The position numbers were made by a program, and so were the translations under genes. The notes below the pieces were generated by a model. That model did no database searches, was not told the DNA's origin, and worked only from the letters and a program-made list of their open reading frames with translations. DNA of 64,000 nt from an uncultured Mollicutes bacterium (GTDB lineage: Bacteria; Bacillota_I; Bacilli_A; Acholeplasmatales; Anaeroplasmataceae), in assembly GCA_947174785.1 (NCBI GenBank), contig CAMWKG010000006.1, positions 1-64,000 on the forward strand, in the 5' to 3' direction. Below are positions 36,262 through 62,223 of this stretch, one piece after another (the stretch's first letter is position 1; the number at the start of each line of letters is the position of its first letter).

Positions 36262-37551
36262 GTGATAGCTAAAACAAGACAAATAACTGGTGCAGTTTCT
36301 ACGACTAGCTTACCTACACTTAGATATTTAGAGCCAGAATATATTTATATGGCTATAACAAATGCCAGATGTGCTGATAGTGATATCTTTGTTAAGGTTG
36401 GTGATAGAGTTAAAATCGGTCAAAAACTAGGAATAAGAAAAGGCCCATTTTTTGAACAGCCTATCCATTCAACCGTTTCGGGAGAGGTGGTAGGATTTGT
36501 TAAGAAATTCCATCGTAGTGGAAAATTAACCGAGTTTATACAAATTAAAAATGATAAAAAGGACGAATGGATTAGTCCTGAAATTCCAAGAAGTGATGAG
36601 GAAATTGATCAATTAACCTTAGAGGATTTTGCAAGAATTACAAAGGATGTTTCTTTAGTTGGTTTGGGTGGTAGTTCTTTCCCAACATATATTAAGTTCC
36701 AGACCAAGGATCCAATCCACACAATATTAATTAATGGTGTTGAATGTGAGCCATATATTTCTTCCGATCACCGTATGATGCTAGAACATCCTAGACGTGT
36801 CATTTTAGGTGCAAGCTATGCAATGAAGGCATTTAAGGCAAAGAAGGGTTTAATCTGTATTAAGAAGAAATATCAGGATTTATATGATTGTTTAACTGCA
36901 GAGCTAACAAGATTTCCAGATTTAAACATTGAGGTATGTCGTGTTGGAAATTATTACCCACAAGGCTGGGAAATTGAAATGATTAAATCAGCTTTAGGAA
37001 TCAAAGTTCCTGCAGGAGTTTTACCTGCCAAGCTTGGGTTAATGGTATTTAACGTTTCAACGACTGTTGGTTTATATCGTGCGATTAAATATAACCAGCC
37101 TGTTACAAAAAGAAACTACACTCTCTCAGGTGATGGAATTAATATTCCTCAGAACATTCGTTTGAGAATAGGAACTTCTTTAAAAGAATTAATAGATGTT
37201 TGTGGTGGATATAAGGGTGATGAAAATAAGGTTCTTATTATGGGTGGACCTATGATGGGAGCGAACCTAGTAAGAGATGATGCGGTCATCACAAAGACTT
37301 GTACATCAACCATTGTTTTAAATGAACGACCAATTCAAGAAGAACCTTGTGTGAGATGTGCTTCCTGTGTATATTCCTGCCCTGCAGGCTTACAGCCAAT
37401 CCAAATTATGCAAGCAGTAAAGAACAAGGATAAGGATGCATTAAACAAGTTAAATATTAAGGCTTGTATTTTATGTGGTATGTGTTCTTATACCTGTACA
37501 TCTAAAATACATTTAACAGATTATTGTCGTAAGGCAAAGAGAATGGTATAG
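36262..37551 (+). CDS. rnfC: Rnf complex subunit C
   Basis: 429 residues: the peripheral NADH- and FMN-binding subunit of the ferredoxin:NAD+ oxidoreductase, an ion-pumping membrane complex. LVGLGGSSFPTYIKF and LINGVECEPYISSDHRMM are the nucleotide/FMN loops. Two [4Fe-4S] sets are visible: Cys363/366/369/373 and Cys402/405/408/412. It starts at GTG behind GGAGGG. The genes that follow run D-G-E-A-x-B, the order usual in Bacillota. Confidence 0.95.
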   Translation: MIAKTRQITGAVSTTSLPTLRYLEPEYIYMAITNARCADSDIFVKVGDRVKIGQKLGIRKGPFFEQPIHSTVSGEVVGFVKKFHRSGKLTEFIQIKNDKKDEWISPEIPRSDEEIDQLTLEDFARITKDVSLVGLGGSSFPTYIKFQTKDPIHTILINGVECEPYISSDHRMMLEHPRRVILGASYAMKAFKAKKGLICIKKKYQDLYDCLTAELTRFPDLNIEVCRVGNYYPQGWEIEMIKSALGIKVPAGVLPAKLGLMVFNVSTTVGLYRAIKYNQPVTKRNYTLSGDGINIPQNIRLRIGTSLKELIDVCGGYKGDENKVLIMGGPMMGANLVRDDAVITKTCTSTIVLNERPIQEEPCVRCASCVYSCPAGLQPIQIMQAVKNKDKDALNKLNIKACILCGMCSYTCTSKIHLTDYCRKAKRMV

Positions 37552-37562
37552 GAGGGATCGAT

Positions 37563-38708
37563 ATGAAGTTAGTTGCTCAAAGTGCTCCATACATTCGTAA
37601 GCCAGTATCTGTTAAGCGAATGATGCTTGATGTTTTAATTGCGTTAATACCCGTATTATTATTCGCTTGTATTCAAAATGGATGGAGTGGAATTTATGTT
37701 GTCTTAATCTCAGTAGCCACTATGCTTGTTACAGAGCTTGTTTGTCATATGTTTATTAAATGGCCAAGTGGTATGAAGATTAAAGAACTCTTTAGTAAAG
37801 AAGGATTTATAAAATTAAAGAATCAGTATACGATTAATAATATTATTGCTCCACTAATTTCTGCAATAATCTATGCACTCATCATGCCGGCAGGCTGTAA
37901 CTGGTATGTGGTATTGATTGGTGCATTATTTGGAATGTTAATTGGTAAAATGATATTTGGTGGTTTAGGTAGTAATATCTTTAACCCAGCTGCCACAGGA
38001 CGTGTATTTGTTGGTGTATGCTTTGGTTCTAAACTTGTTTATGGACAAGGTGGAGTTGATGTTGCAGCATCTGGTACACCACTTGCTGCAATCAAAGGTA
38101 ATCTAGGAATGGTTGGACAAGCATTAAATGAATATAGCTTGCTAGATTTATTCTTAGGACAGATTCCAGGATCCATGGGTGAGGTTTGTTCCTTACTAAT
38201 TATCATTGGTGGAATTTATTTGTTTGTAAGAAGAAGTGCTGATTTGAGAGCATGTTTATCTATGATAGGAAGCTTTGCCATAATTTCTTTAGTTGTAAGT
38301 ATTACAGCATACTGTGTTTGGAGTAATCAAGGACACGATGCAGTCGTTGGTGCAGACTGGAGTATATTTGATTTATTTATGTATGAAATGCTTTCTGGTG
38401 GCTTGTTATTTGGTGCTGTGTTTATGATTACAGACCCTGTAACTTCTCCAACCACAAAGTTTGGTAGAATTGCATTTGGTGCAATGGCTGGTATTATTAC
38501 AGCATTAGTTAGATATTGTGGAGCATATCCAGAGGGTGTTGCCTTCTCTATTCTAATTGCGAATATGTTTGCTCCAGCAATGGATTATTTAATGCGTGGC
38601 AAAAAGAATACCTATACTTGGAAACAACTATTAGGCTTAGGAATAGCAATGGTAGTGATCTGTTTAATTGTAGGGTTCTCTGTTGCCTCACAAATGGGAG
38701 GGCTATAA
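37563..38708 (+). CDS. rnfD: Rnf complex subunit D
   Basis: 381 residues with nine or ten transmembrane helices. GSNIFNPAATGR and TDPVTSPTTKFG are the conserved RnfD/NqrB segments; the latter contains the Thr region that carries covalent FMN in relatives. The subunit forms part of the ion path. SD GGAGG, 11 bases after rnfC. Confidence 0.94.
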   Translation: MKLVAQSAPYIRKPVSVKRMMLDVLIALIPVLLFACIQNGWSGIYVVLISVATMLVTELVCHMFIKWPSGMKIKELFSKEGFIKLKNQYTINNIIAPLISAIIYALIMPAGCNWYVVLIGALFGMLIGKMIFGGLGSNIFNPAATGRVFVGVCFGSKLVYGQGGVDVAASGTPLAAIKGNLGMVGQALNEYSLLDLFLGQIPGSMGEVCSLLIIIGGIYLFVRRSADLRACLSMIGSFAIISLVVSITAYCVWSNQGHDAVVGADWSIFDLFMYEMLSGGLLFGAVFMITDPVTSPTTKFGRIAFGAMAGIITALVRYCGAYPEGVAFSILIANMFAPAMDYLMRGKKNTYTWKQLLGLGIAMVVICLIVGFSVASQMGGL

Positions 38709-38709
38709 G

Positions 38710-39261
38710 ATGAAAAAATATACTATAACTGCTCTTATTCTAACTTTAATTGCTGGTGTTTGTGCAGCATTAATTGCTTGCGTAAATTTACTAACAGCGC
38801 CGATTATTACCAAAAATAATGATGCAAAGAAAGCTAGACTTTGCCAAGAAGTATTTGAAACCTATGATGCAAGCAAATCTACAACAATTACAGAAGGCTT
38901 TTCTTCTAGTAATATTGAAGAGGTTATTGTTGCTTATGATGCAAGTGGAAAATTCTTAGGATTTATTTATACGGTAGATGGTTCAAACGCTTATGGTGAA
39001 ATTGAATTATTATTAGGTATTACTTCTGATTCTAAACTTGCAGGTGTGCGTTTTATTACAAACGGACAATCCTTCTCTAGTGAGGCAGATACACATTTGA
39101 ACAATCAGTATAAAGAGAATATGACAGAATCAGATGTAGATAATCTAGACTTAACAAAATCAGATGTTACTGCAGGTGCTACTTTTGCATCAAAATTAAT
39201 TCGTAGTCTAGTTAAGTCAGCATTCGATGATGCAAAGACAAGACAAGGAGGTGCGAACTAA
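38710..39261 (+). CDS. rnfG: Rnf complex subunit G
   Basis: About 183 residues: one N-terminal transmembrane helix and an extracytoplasmic FMN domain. DVTAGATFASKLI holds the FMN-accepting Thr158 (consensus S/T-G-A-T). ATG 38710 follows GGGAGG at the end of rnfD; the longer frame from 38683 has no ribosome site. Its stop overlaps the rnfE start by one base. Confidence 0.93.
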   Translation: MKKYTITALILTLIAGVCAALIACVNLLTAPIITKNNDAKKARLCQEVFETYDASKSTTITEGFSSSNIEEVIVAYDASGKFLGFIYTVDGSNAYGEIELLLGITSDSKLAGVRFITNGQSFSSEADTHLNNQYKENMTESDVDNLDLTKSDVTAGATFASKLIRSLVKSAFDDAKTRQGGAN

Positions 39262-40016
39262 TGGAACAGACAAAAGAAAAACCAGTAAAAGAAAAATCTA
39301 ATCGATTAAAAGCATTCTTGGCTGGTATTATAAAAGAAAACCCTGTATTGGTTGGTTTGCTTGGTATGTGTCCAACATTGGCAACAACTAAGTCTTTAGA
39401 GTCAGCCTTTGGTATGGGTATATTAGTTATTCTTACATTAATTGGTTCAAATGTTTTGATTTCTTTATTAAGAAAGATTATTCCTTCAGAAGTAAAGATT
39501 CCTTGTTACATTGTAATTATCGCAACCTTCGTTACGATCATTAAGATGTTTGCAGAAGCATTCTTGCCAGAACTATATGCTAGCTTGGGTGTGTTTATTT
39601 CTCTAATTGTTGTAAACTGTATCATCCTAGGGCGTGCAGAAGCCTTTGCTTCTAAAAATGGACCGCTATTATCTTTATTAGATGCATTAGGTATGGGAAT
39701 TGGATTTACAATGGCTTTATGTATTATGGGTATCATTCGTGAGATATTAGGTACTGGCGGATTAACCTTTGGGGTATATTTCACCTTTATTCCTTATACG
39801 AGTATAACCCCTTTATCTGAATATGCAATTAAGCTATTTGTTCTTCCAGCTGGTGGTTTCTTAACCTTAGGTTGTATCTTAGCTGTTATGGCATTTTATA
39901 GAAATCATAAGGAAGAAAAAAAGCTTTTAGCAGAAAAGAAAAGAATAGAAGAATTAAAAGCTAAAAAAGCAGCTGAATTAGCTGCTAAGCAGGCTGAAGT
40001 AAAGGAGGACAAGTAA
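39261..40016 (+). CDS. rnfE: Rnf complex subunit E
   Basis: 251 residues, six transmembrane helices. GMCPTLATTKSLESAFGMG and NCIILGRAEAFASKNG hold the two Cys that, with those of RnfA, bind the intramembrane [2Fe-2S] cluster in structurally studied Rnf/Nqr complexes. A Lys/Glu/Ala-rich cytoplasmic tail of about 40 residues makes it slightly longer than usual. Confidence 0.95.
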   Translation: MEQTKEKPVKEKSNRLKAFLAGIIKENPVLVGLLGMCPTLATTKSLESAFGMGILVILTLIGSNVLISLLRKIIPSEVKIPCYIVIIATFVTIIKMFAEAFLPELYASLGVFISLIVVNCIILGRAEAFASKNGPLLSLLDALGMGIGFTMALCIMGIIREILGTGGLTFGVYFTFIPYTSITPLSEYAIKLFVLPAGGFLTLGCILAVMAFYRNHKEEKKLLAEKKRIEELKAKKAAELAAKQAEVKEDK

Positions 40017-40017
40017 A

Positions 40018-40608
40018 ATGATTTGGAATTTAATTGTTGCATTTTTATTAGCTGTTGCAAATGCAATGCTAATCAATAACGTTACACTTTCAAGATTTTA
40101 TGGTGTATGTCCTTTCTTAGGTGTTTCTAAAAAATCTTCATCTGCTTTGGGTATGGGTGTTGCAGTTACATTTGTTATTGTTCTTGCAGCAGCAATCTGC
40201 TGGCCAATTTATCAGCTTTTAGATTTCTGTGGTATTGCTTATATGGATACAATTACTTATATCCTTGTTATTGCATCTATTGTTCAATTGGTTGAAATGT
40301 TCATTAAAAAGTTTTCACCTTCTCTATATAAGTCTCTAGGTGTATATTTACCATTGATTACTACAAACTGTGCTGTATTGGGTGTTGCTCAAGGAAACTC
40401 ATCTCAAGGCTTAAACTTCGGTATGTCTATGGCAGAAGCTATTGGTACAGGCTTAGGATTTGCTTTGATTATCTTCGTATTTTCATGTATTCGTTATCGT
40501 TTGGATGCTGCCAATGTTCCTAAGGCATTTAAGGGAATTCCTATTGCTTTAGCAACCGCAGCTCTAATGAGCTTAGCCTTCTTAGGCTTGTCAGGAATGA
40601 TTGGATAG
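40018..40608 (+). CDS. rnfA: Rnf complex subunit A
   Basis: 196 residues, six transmembrane helices, paralogous to RnfE in inverted topology. NNVTLSRFYGVCPFLGVSKK and TTNCAVLGVA supply its two cluster Cys. AAAGGAGGACAAGTAA overlaps the end of rnfE and places this ATG in good register. Confidence 0.95.
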   Translation: MIWNLIVAFLLAVANAMLINNVTLSRFYGVCPFLGVSKKSSSALGMGVAVTFVIVLAAAICWPIYQLLDFCGIAYMDTITYILVIASIVQLVEMFIKKFSPSLYKSLGVYLPLITTNCAVLGVAQGNSSQGLNFGMSMAEAIGTGLGFALIIFVFSCIRYRLDAANVPKAFKGIPIALATAALMSLAFLGLSGMIG

Positions 40609-40609
40609 T

Positions 40610-40843
40610 ATGAATCCATTTTTAGGATTAGCTATTGCAATTATAGCCTGTTTAGTTGTACTGTTCATTGTGTCCTATGTTTTAAACAAAAGAACACCAG
40701 TTCCTAAGGGATGTGAAAACATTAAAATCTCTGAGGAGTTTTGCTTGAATTGTACAAATACAGAATGTAAAATACATGAAAAACTGGATTTAGAAAAACT
40801 CAAAAAAGAACTAGAAACAGAAAGCGAGGATAAAGAAGAATGA
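40610..40843 (+). CDS. small cysteine-rich membrane protein within the Rnf operon
   Basis: About 77 residues. One N-terminal membrane helix (residues 4-25) is followed by a soluble part with Cys35, Cys45, Cys48 and Cys53 (C-x9-C-x2-C-x4-C) and a charged C-terminal helix. I do not recognise a family. It begins directly after the rnfA stop and overlaps rnfB by four bases (ATGA). The four Cys could bind an Fe-S cluster or zinc, and the position suggests a role with the shortened RnfB. The start at ATG 40610 is chosen over TTG 40601, which lies inside rnfA. Confidence 0.7.
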   Translation: MNPFLGLAIAIIACLVVLFIVSYVLNKRTPVPKGCENIKISEEFCLNCTNTECKIHEKLDLEKLKKELETESEDKEE

Positions 40844-41163
40844 AAGAAGTATTTATCGCAATAGGAATATTAGCTGGATTGGGATTGCTCTTTGGATTTG
40901 GTCTTGCTATAGCTGCAAAGTTCTTGTATGTTAAAGTAGATACAAGAATAGAAGATATTACAGGTATCCTTCCTAATGCAAACTGTGGTGCATGTGGATA
41001 TCCTGGATGTGCAGGTTTTGCAGAGGCAATTGTAAATCAAACGGCTGAAAATTTAAGTCTTTGTAAACCAGGATTAAAATCTGGAAAGCCAGAGGCAATC
41101 AGAAAATATTTGGATGAACATCCCAATGATGATGGTTCAGTTAATCCAATAAAGTTAAAATAA
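40840..41163 (+). CDS. rnfB: short Rnf complex subunit B, lacking ferredoxin domains
   Basis: 107 residues only. A membrane helix (about 4-25) is followed by the RnfB-specific [4Fe-4S] motif with Cys49, Cys52, Cys57 and Cys75 (NCGACGYPGC and LCKPG). RnfB of Escherichia coli (about 190 residues) and of clostridia (270 or more) continues with two to several [4Fe-4S] ferredoxin modules; here the frame stops after GSVNPIKLK, and no further Cys-rich frame follows before the terminator at 41230. It is therefore a genuinely short protein or an old truncation, not a fresh frameshift. Electron entry from ferredoxin must use this single cluster or a partner. Confidence 0.85.
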   Translation: MKEVFIAIGILAGLGLLFGFGLAIAAKFLYVKVDTRIEDITGILPNANCGACGYPGCAGFAEAIVNQTAENLSLCKPGLKSGKPEAIRKYLDEHPNDDGSVNPIKLK

Positions 41164-41229: not shown

Positions 41230-41256
41230 AGGCATAACTTTACGTTATGCCTTTTC
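41230..41256 (+). terminator. terminator of the Rnf operon
   Basis: AGGCATAAC / GTTATGCCT, a nine-base-pair perfect stem with a five-base loop, followed by TTTTCT. Confidence 0.85.
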
Positions 41257-41303
41257 TGATTTTACATAGACGAAAGAATCGCAGGGCGAACGGAACTTAT
41301 AAA

Positions 41304-61710: not shown

Positions 61711-62223
61711 ATGAAAAGCTTAATCGTGTATTATTCTAGAAAGGGAGAAAACTATTGGAATGGTACTATAAAAAATCTGGAAAAAGGAAATACAGAAATC
61801 ATTGCTGAAATGATTAGCAAGCTTACAGCTGGAGATTTATTTGAAATTGAAACAGTTAAAAGTTATTCTAATGACTATTATAAATGCATAAATGAGGCTC
61901 AAACAGAGTTACATGCTAGTGAACGTCCTGCCCTTAAATCCTTTGTAGATAGCATTAAGGAATATGATACAATATTTGTGGGTTATCCAAATTGGTGGGG
62001 AACTATGCCTATGGCTGTGTTTACTTTCTTAGAGCATTATGATTTATCGGGTAAAACTATTTTACCATTTTGTACTAACGAAGGTAGTGGAATGGGAAGT
62101 AGTGAGAAAGACTTAAAAAGGATTTGTAAAGGTGCTGTTGTGAAACTGGGTTTATCGATTCATGGTGCTGAAGCAAAGGAATCTGAGGCAAAGGTTAAAG
62201 CTTGGCTTGATAAATCTCTATAA
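61711..62223 (+). CDS. flavodoxin
   Basis: About 170 residues. VYYSRKGENYWNG near the N-terminus is the FMN phosphate loop of the YSRxGENY flavodoxin group, GYPNWWGTMPMAVFTFLE the isoalloxazine loop, and FCTNEGSGMGSS the third FMN contact. It carries low-potential electrons. ATG 61711 follows GGAGGA. The Fe-S aldo/keto reductase 23 bases downstream may be its redox partner. Confidence 0.9.
   Translation: MKSLIVYYSRKGENYWNGTIKNLEKGNTEIIAEMISKLTAGDLFEIETVKSYSNDYYKCINEAQTELHASERPALKSFVDSIKEYDTIFVGYPNWWGTMPMAVFTFLEHYDLSGKTILPFCTNEGSGMGSSEKDLKRICKGAVVKLGLSIHGAEAKESEAKVKAWLDKSL

What the first reader, a model, noticed from the sequence alone, without database searches (positions are those of the whole stretch)
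40610..41163. Minimal RnfB without ferredoxin domains next to a new four-cysteine membrane protein
The Rnf operon is otherwise intact, but RnfB stops at 107 residues after its single RnfB-type [4Fe-4S] motif. No lost frame follows it. A 77-residue membrane protein with C-x9-C-x2-C-x4-C is inserted directly before it with an ATGA overlap. The pair could be a different electron-entry module, perhaps using flavodoxin (one is encoded at 61711) instead of ferredoxin.
Basis: partly seen in the sequence, partly recalled or inferred. Interest (0 to 1): 0.6.

Follow-up and report, generated by a model that had tools for sequence, protein, structure and literature searches.

The report
Stripped-down RnfB with four-cysteine membrane partner
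A large group of gut and mollicute-related bacteria builds the ion-pumping Rnf complex with an RnfB subunit that has lost its whole ferredoxin-receiving domain and is almost always accompanied by a tiny uncharacterised cysteine-rich membrane protein; electrons must therefore enter this pump by a simpler route than in any Rnf structure solved so far.

Summary
The window carries rnfC-D-G-E-A, then a 77-aa one-helix protein (C-x9-C-x2-C-x4-C; here 'sm4C'), then a 107-aa RnfB. This is the only RnfB-type FeS gene in a 96%-complete genome. The short RnfB matches solved RnfB only over the membrane helix and the small flexible [4Fe-4S] domain; the part holding 2-7 further clusters in the solved complexes is absent. 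This is a conserved variant: 80 of 80 loci from a pattern scan of ~85,000 species genomes have the order CDGEA-sm4C-shortB. In 296 genomes of the class, sm4C occurs in 143 of 153 with Rnf and non-full-length RnfB, 0 of 5 with full-length RnfB, and 0 of 12 with only other RnfA-family (NQR-type) genes. Sampled short-RnfB complexes form one clade (97/86), so the association probably arose once.

The flavodoxin idea fails: the cited gene is a Flavodoxin_4 protein, and the genome encodes a 2[4Fe-4S] ferredoxin and [FeFe] hydrogenases. Most likely soluble ferredoxin reduces the membrane-tethered RnfB cluster directly. Whether sm4C handles iron/cluster assembly (NqrM-like architecture) or is a redox/docking subunit is undecided; I lean to the former. 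sm4C matches no curated Pfam, NCBIfam or PDB family. New variant of a known kind.

The parts
36262..37551 (+). rnfC (429 aa), FMN/NADH subunit with two C-terminal [4Fe-4S] motifs
   Evidence: TIGR01945 E 7.6e-104; PF01512, PF13375, PF10531, Fer4; aligns nearly end to end with solved RnfC chains 7zc6_C, 9eri_C
37563..38708 (+). rnfD (381 aa)
   Evidence: PF03116 E 1.2e-82
38710..39261 (+). rnfG (183 aa), FMN-binding
   Evidence: PF04205 22.2 bits, cut-off 22; TIGR01947 E 3e-10, below its cut-off
39261..40016 (+). rnfE (251 aa), keeps both [2Fe-2S] Cys ligands (C37, C120)
   Evidence: TIGR01948 E 1.9e-67; invariant Cys columns
40018..40608 (+). rnfA (196 aa), keeps both [2Fe-2S] Cys ligands (C31, C118)
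   Evidence: TIGR01943 over cut-off; invariant Cys columns; aligned to A. woodii RnfA 9eri_A
40610..40843 (+). sm4C: 77-aa single-helix membrane protein, N-[KR]-[KR]-T-P-x-P-x-x-C-x9-C-x2-C-x4-C then a charged tail
   Evidence: Conserved in 40 of 55 family genomes, 92 of 160 order genomes, 80/80 pattern-scan loci; no Pfam/NCBIfam/PDB family
40840..41163 (+). short rnfB (107 aa): membrane helix + one RnfB-type [4Fe-4S] domain, no Fer4 domain
   Evidence: PF04060 only; profile matches solved RnfB only over residues 5-97 of 333 (9eri_B) and 5-89 of 274 (7zc6_B); dN/dS 0.03-0.08
41231..41257 (+). terminator-like hairpin GGCATAAC-TTTAC-GTTATGCC followed by T-rich stretch, end of operon
   Evidence: read directly from the sequence

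Best explanation
This is a lineage-specific variant of the Rnf complex. Shown by sequence: RnfB has been reduced to its membrane helix and the small flexible [4Fe-4S] domain that in solved complexes passes electrons to the RnfA/E [2Fe-2S] cluster; the other redox sites examined (RnfA/E cysteines, RnfC FMN and FeS domains) are kept; the reduced RnfB is accompanied by a one-helix, four-Cys membrane protein, sm4C. Inferred: soluble 2[4Fe-4S] ferredoxin takes the place of the missing RnfB domain and reduces the tethered RnfB cluster directly, after which the usual path through RnfA/E, RnfG, RnfD and RnfC to NAD+ is unchanged. Inferred, less certain: sm4C, with its cysteines just inside the membrane, is an accessory iron- or cluster-handling factor for this Rnf type (working like NqrM does for Na+-NQR) rather than an electron carrier.
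For: RnfB anatomy. In A. woodii the terminal domain (residues 30-100 of RnfB) docks between RnfA and RnfE, and the 7-cluster part receives ferredoxin (PMC11889175); solved RnfB C-terminal domains hold 2-7 clusters (PMC12174285). Intact rest. Purifying selection. Ferredoxin in the genome. Conserved operon. Association with the short-RnfB type, 143/153 versus 0/5 (full length) and 0/12 (other RnfA-family genes only). Short-RnfB Rnf as one clade. For an accessory role: sm4C is encoded away from rnf, beside housekeeping genes, in several families; some members lack the first Cys; weak affinity to FeoB-associated Cys-rich proteins (16 of 24 members, best E 0.0015); helix-plus-four-Cys layout shared with NqrM, with only a weak profile alignment.
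Against: No biochemistry of any member was found. The RnfA/E [2Fe-2S] ligands are also invariant in genomes with full-length RnfB or NQR-type clusters that lack sm4C, so sm4C is not generally needed to build that cluster; any maturation role must be specific to this lineage or to the RnfB cluster. Operon position and absence outside the short-RnfB clade fit a structural or redox partner of RnfB equally well. Ten genomes with non-full-length RnfB have no detected sm4C: four are reduced 0.8-0.9 Mb genomes, several are incomplete, but at least G368 (99% complete, one contig) is not.
Confidence: 0.6

Rival explanations
1. sm4C is a true subunit and part of a new electron-entry port: its cysteines bind an Fe or Fe-S centre at the cytoplasmic membrane face that relays electrons from, or docks, ferredoxin to the short RnfB, replacing the lost Fer4 domain.
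For: Gene between rnfA and rnfB with overlapping stop/start; presence tracks the short RnfB type and not the other types; the inspected genomes with a second short-RnfB Rnf cluster lacking its own sm4C have a further sm4C elsewhere.
Against: Unlinked from rnf in several families; some lineages have three Cys or only two, unusual for a required electron relay; Cys loop modelled with low confidence and no fold match in the PDB.
Confidence: 0.33
2. RnfB is simply minimal and sm4C is a lineage-specific structural (for example zinc-binding) or regulatory protein with no role in electron entry or cluster assembly.
For: Single origin of both features means the correlation has little independent replication; related one-helix Cys proteins sit next to copper-type or pyruvate dehydrogenase genes in some genomes.
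Against: Retained in nearly all short-RnfB genomes even when unlinked, and missing from those with full-length RnfB or NQR-type clusters.
Confidence: 0.2
3. RnfB is truncated by mutation or assembly error, or the Fer4 domain is encoded in a neighbouring gene.
For: RnfB is less than half the usual length.
Against: Similar length (92-142 aa frames) in 80 loci; dN/dS 0.03-0.08; no Fer4 gene following RnfB on its strand in 77 loci; no second PF04060 gene in the genome.
Confidence: 0.02
4. Flavodoxin replaces ferredoxin as the donor.
For: A flavodoxin-fold gene at 61711.
Against: It is PF12682 Flavodoxin_4 next to aldo/keto reductases, and a standard 2[4Fe-4S] ferredoxin plus [FeFe] hydrogenases are encoded.
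Confidence: 0.04

Closest known systems
Rnf complex of Acetobacterium woodii / Clostridium tetanomorphum (PDB 9eri, 7zc6)
   Same: Subunits A, B, C, D, E, G; gene order CDGEA-B; four RnfA/E cysteines for the [2Fe-2S] cluster; RnfC with FMN domain and two FeS motifs; RnfB membrane helix and terminal [4Fe-4S] domain
   Different: RnfB lacks the ferredoxin-receiving multi-cluster domain; an extra one-helix four-Cys protein is encoded before rnfB
NqrM (PF04400, DUF539), maturation protein of Na+-NQR
   Same: One membrane helix followed by a positive patch and four cysteines; encoded with an Rnf/NQR-family pump
   Different: No PF04400 match and no GSCGGL motif; Cys spacing x3-9, x2, x4 rather than a C-x-C plus PC pattern; sits inside the operon before rnfB; profile alignment weak (probability 23%)
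FeoB-associated Cys-rich membrane protein (PF12669)
   Same: Small, one helix, Cys-rich; weak profile affinity (16 of 24 members, best E 0.0015)
   Different: Not next to feoB in the loci read; only weak matches
Azotobacter vinelandii Rnf1 (PDB 8ahx)
   Same: Core subunits; smallest RnfB among the solved complexes
   Different: Its RnfB still has 2 further [4Fe-4S] clusters, and it has RnfH, for which no relation to sm4C was seen

Membership tests
Rnf complex (RnfABCDGE) | All six subunit genes in one operon | tested here: met
Rnf complex (RnfABCDGE) | Four RnfA/RnfE cysteines binding the membrane [2Fe-2S] cluster | tested here: met
   invariant columns; RnfA aligned to 9eri_A
Rnf complex (RnfABCDGE) | RnfB membrane helix plus RnfB-type [4Fe-4S] domain | tested here: met
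Rnf complex (RnfABCDGE) | RnfB C-terminal multi-cluster (Fer4) domain, as in all solved Rnf | tested here: not met
   no Fer4 match in RnfB; protein ends at residue 107; present in the contrast genomes, e.g. L216. So this is filed as a variant, not as a typical Rnf
Rnf complex (RnfABCDGE) | Ferredoxin:NAD+ oxidoreductase activity coupled to ion transport | not testable with these tools
   needs biochemistry
NqrM (PF04400) | PF04400 profile match / GSCGGL motif | tested here: not met
   no PF04400 hit for the window protein or among the listed families for 24 members; a probe NqrM sequence written from memory does hit PF04400 at E 1.6e-23
NqrM (PF04400) | One N-terminal helix, positive patch, then four Cys | tested here: met
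   A1, A3, A4 alignments; helix 3-28 in the AF2 model
NqrM (PF04400) | Required for cluster assembly of the pump | not testable with these tools
   needs a deletion mutant
FeoB-associated Cys-rich protein (PF12669) | PF12669 match for the window protein | tested here: not met
   not among the window protein's hits at E <= 10; best other member E 0.0015

The most novel reading that the evidence does not exclude
sm4C plus the short RnfB form a new electron-entry port: a membrane-tethered Cys-ligated Fe or Fe-S centre working with the lone RnfB cluster, replacing the polyferredoxin arm found in every solved Rnf complex.
Probability: 0.27. Interest if true: 0.75.

Novelty: new variant of a known kind. 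Interest (0 to 1): 0.55.

Why it matters
The ferredoxin-receiving arm of RnfB is treated as a standard part of the Rnf machine. A widespread natural variant without it offers a minimal Rnf for asking what that arm contributes and how ferredoxin meets the terminal cluster, and it adds an uncharacterised conserved partner protein in common gut genera (Holdemanella, Faecalicoccus, Allobaculum, Solobacterium).

Tried and rejected
Split-off Fer4 gene downstream of RnfB: none on its strand in 77 loci. Second or full-length RnfB in the genome: none. Flavodoxin donor: rejected. sm4C as a general [2Fe-2S] maturation factor for all Rnf/NQR in these bacteria: contradicted, since clusters without sm4C keep all four Cys ligands. 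Short RnfC tail as a sign of the lost RnfB contact: 17-30 residues against 32-36 in the full-length group, but the solved complexes appear to overlap this range, so inconclusive. NqrM homology by profile alignment: weak, probability 23%, and the NqrM template was a single sequence written from memory, so a lead only. AF2 of sm4C: confident helix, low-confidence Cys region, no PDB fold match. dN/dS of sm4C mostly saturated; one value 0.14. A literature search in the held open-access library found no report of a Fer4-less RnfB; the NqrM primary paper was not held. The 'phylum' sample listed only members of the same class, so Clostridia were not surveyed genome by genome.

Full report
Observation. 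The rnf operon at 36262-41163 (+) encodes C, D, G, E, A, a 77-aa membrane protein (sm4C) and a 107-aa RnfB. RnfB holds one PF04060 domain and no Fer4 domain. It matches solved RnfB only over the first 84-97 residues: 9eri_B 5-97 of 333, 7zc6_B 5-89 of 274, 8ahx_B 1-84 of 174. In A. woodii, residues 30-100 form the flexible terminal-cluster domain that docks between RnfA and RnfE, and the rest carries seven clusters and receives ferredoxin (PMC11889175). The window RnfB is therefore helix plus terminal-cluster domain and nothing else. The AF2 model of it is confident throughout (mean pLDDT 89.7).

Not an accident. RnfB dN/dS within the genus is 0.03-0.08, similar to RnfA. The genome (G000, 96% complete) has no other PF04060 gene. 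In the family (55 genomes) the RnfB frames linked to rnf are 106-129 aa, with sm4C directly upstream. In the order (160 genomes) 92 have an sm4C match and 93 a PF04060 match; the rnf-linked frames are 102-136 aa. A pattern scan of one genome per species for 84,980 species kept 80 loci (of 93 relatives), and all 80 show sm4C directly before a short RnfB, in an rnf operon wherever the contig reaches that far. They include Anaeroplasmataceae, Holdemanella, Faecalicoccus, Faecalitalea, Allobaculum, Solobacterium, Beduini and two Leptotrichiaceae MAGs. The window's RnfA is nearest to Anaeroplasmataceae (99% identity).

Contrast groups. In 296 genomes of the class (refined; tally), sm4C occurs in 143 of 153 genomes with RnfA and an RnfB not known to be full length, in 0 of 5 with full-length RnfB (genus g85 of family f9; four inspected, RnfB 267-277 aa where complete, with Fer4 domains shown for L216; the fifth, G326, assigned by genus), in 0 of 12 with RnfA-family genes but no PF04060, and in 5 of 126 without RnfA. 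Five RnfB-less loci were read: D-G-E-A followed, in the two read gene by gene (L236, L238), by an NqrF-like protein (TIGR01941 over cut-off for L238); their RnfA homologues group with NqrE. All four [2Fe-2S] cysteines are invariant in the short, full-length and NQR-type groups, so sm4C is not a general requirement for that cluster. The RnfA tree puts the 51 sampled short-RnfB clusters in one clade (97/86) with the full-length g85 group outside. The association thus rests on one origin with long retention, not on many independent events.

Caveats on the tally. It was assembled by hand from printed tables. Frame lengths were printed only for the stronger PF04060 matches; weaker ones were counted as short unless inspected. 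Of the ten exceptions, four are 0.8-0.9 Mb genomes with a divergent RnfB where seen (L220, L221), others are incomplete or contaminated, and at least G368 is complete with short RnfB and no recognisable sm4C.

The small protein. Layout: a few residues, one helix (AF2 residues 3-28), N-[KR]-[KR]-T-P-x-P-x-G-C-E, then C-x2-C-x4-C and a charged tail. The positive patch after the helix suggests a cytoplasmic Cys region (positive-inside rule, general knowledge). It matches no curated family in Pfam, NCBIfam or PDB sequences; the nearest weak affinity is PF12669 FeoB-associated. In families f19, f24 and part of f9 it is encoded away from rnf beside unrelated housekeeping genes, and some members there have lost the first Cys. 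In f16, where extra Rnf clusters lack an adjacent sm4C, further sm4C copies occur elsewhere, mostly of the three-Cys type.

Mechanism. Shown: loss of the RnfB receiving domain, retention of the other redox sites examined, and presence in the genome of a 2[4Fe-4S] ferredoxin and of [FeFe] hydrogenases of groups A6 and B1. Inferred: soluble ferredoxin reduces the RnfB terminal cluster directly. For sm4C, unlinked housekeeping contexts, tolerance of Cys loss, weak iron-protein affinity and the NqrM-like layout favour an accessory iron/cluster role; strict association with the short type and the position next to rnfB favour a direct partner. I weigh these about 0.45 to 0.33, with the remainder for other roles.

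Known or new. Published descriptions of solved Rnf give RnfB 2-7 clusters in the C-terminal domain (PMC12174285); I found no report of a zero-cluster form or of sm4C in the held open-access library, which misses most subscription papers. By sequence the complex is an Rnf lacking one otherwise standard part: a new variant of a known kind, with one new small protein family attached.

Noticed in passing
L236:2551-7810 (G059), L238:4431-8226 (G079); related clusters in L237, L239, L240: NQR-type cluster without an nqrA/rnfC gene beside it: D/B-G/C-E/D-A/E-NqrF-like (about 360 aa; TIGR01941 over cut-off for L238). RnfA homologues group with V. cholerae NqrE.
   Followed up: partly
L213:5625-6188, L214:6004-6558 (family f12): RnfB with two tandem RnfB-type FeS motifs (184-187 aa) and no Fer4 domain where scanned (L213); sm4C precedes it, and L213 has a second sm4C after it.
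   Followed up: partly
L152:2389-6678 and L154:2404-6678: RnfG frames of 1424-1429 aa in the same rnf operon type; possibly multi-domain extracytosolic flavoproteins. RnfG of 577-610 aa in L227 and L145.
   Followed up: no
L147, L163, L164, L178, L184 and others: RnfD frames of 480-780 aa, much longer than the usual ~330-380: insertion or fusion.
   Followed up: no
L158, L168: Two Leptotrichiaceae (Fusobacteriota) MAGs carry the CDGEA-sm4C-shortB operon, nested within the Bacilli clade in the RnfA tree: lateral transfer or mis-binning.
   Followed up: partly
L302:4708-4851, L307:4769-4960, L301, L304, L305: sm4C-like proteins with altered Cys sets beside heavy-metal-domain/copper-type genes or pyruvate dehydrogenase genes, suggesting a wider one-helix metal-binding family.
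   Followed up: partly
L220:65-349, L221:216-500 (0.8-0.9 Mb genomes, family f14): Highly divergent 94-aa RnfB about 100 bases after rnfA, with no recognisable sm4C.
   Followed up: partly
window 61711-62223: The gene called flavodoxin is PF12682 Flavodoxin_4, next to two aldo/keto-reductase-like genes, one with a C-terminal Fer4-type motif.
   Followed up: partly
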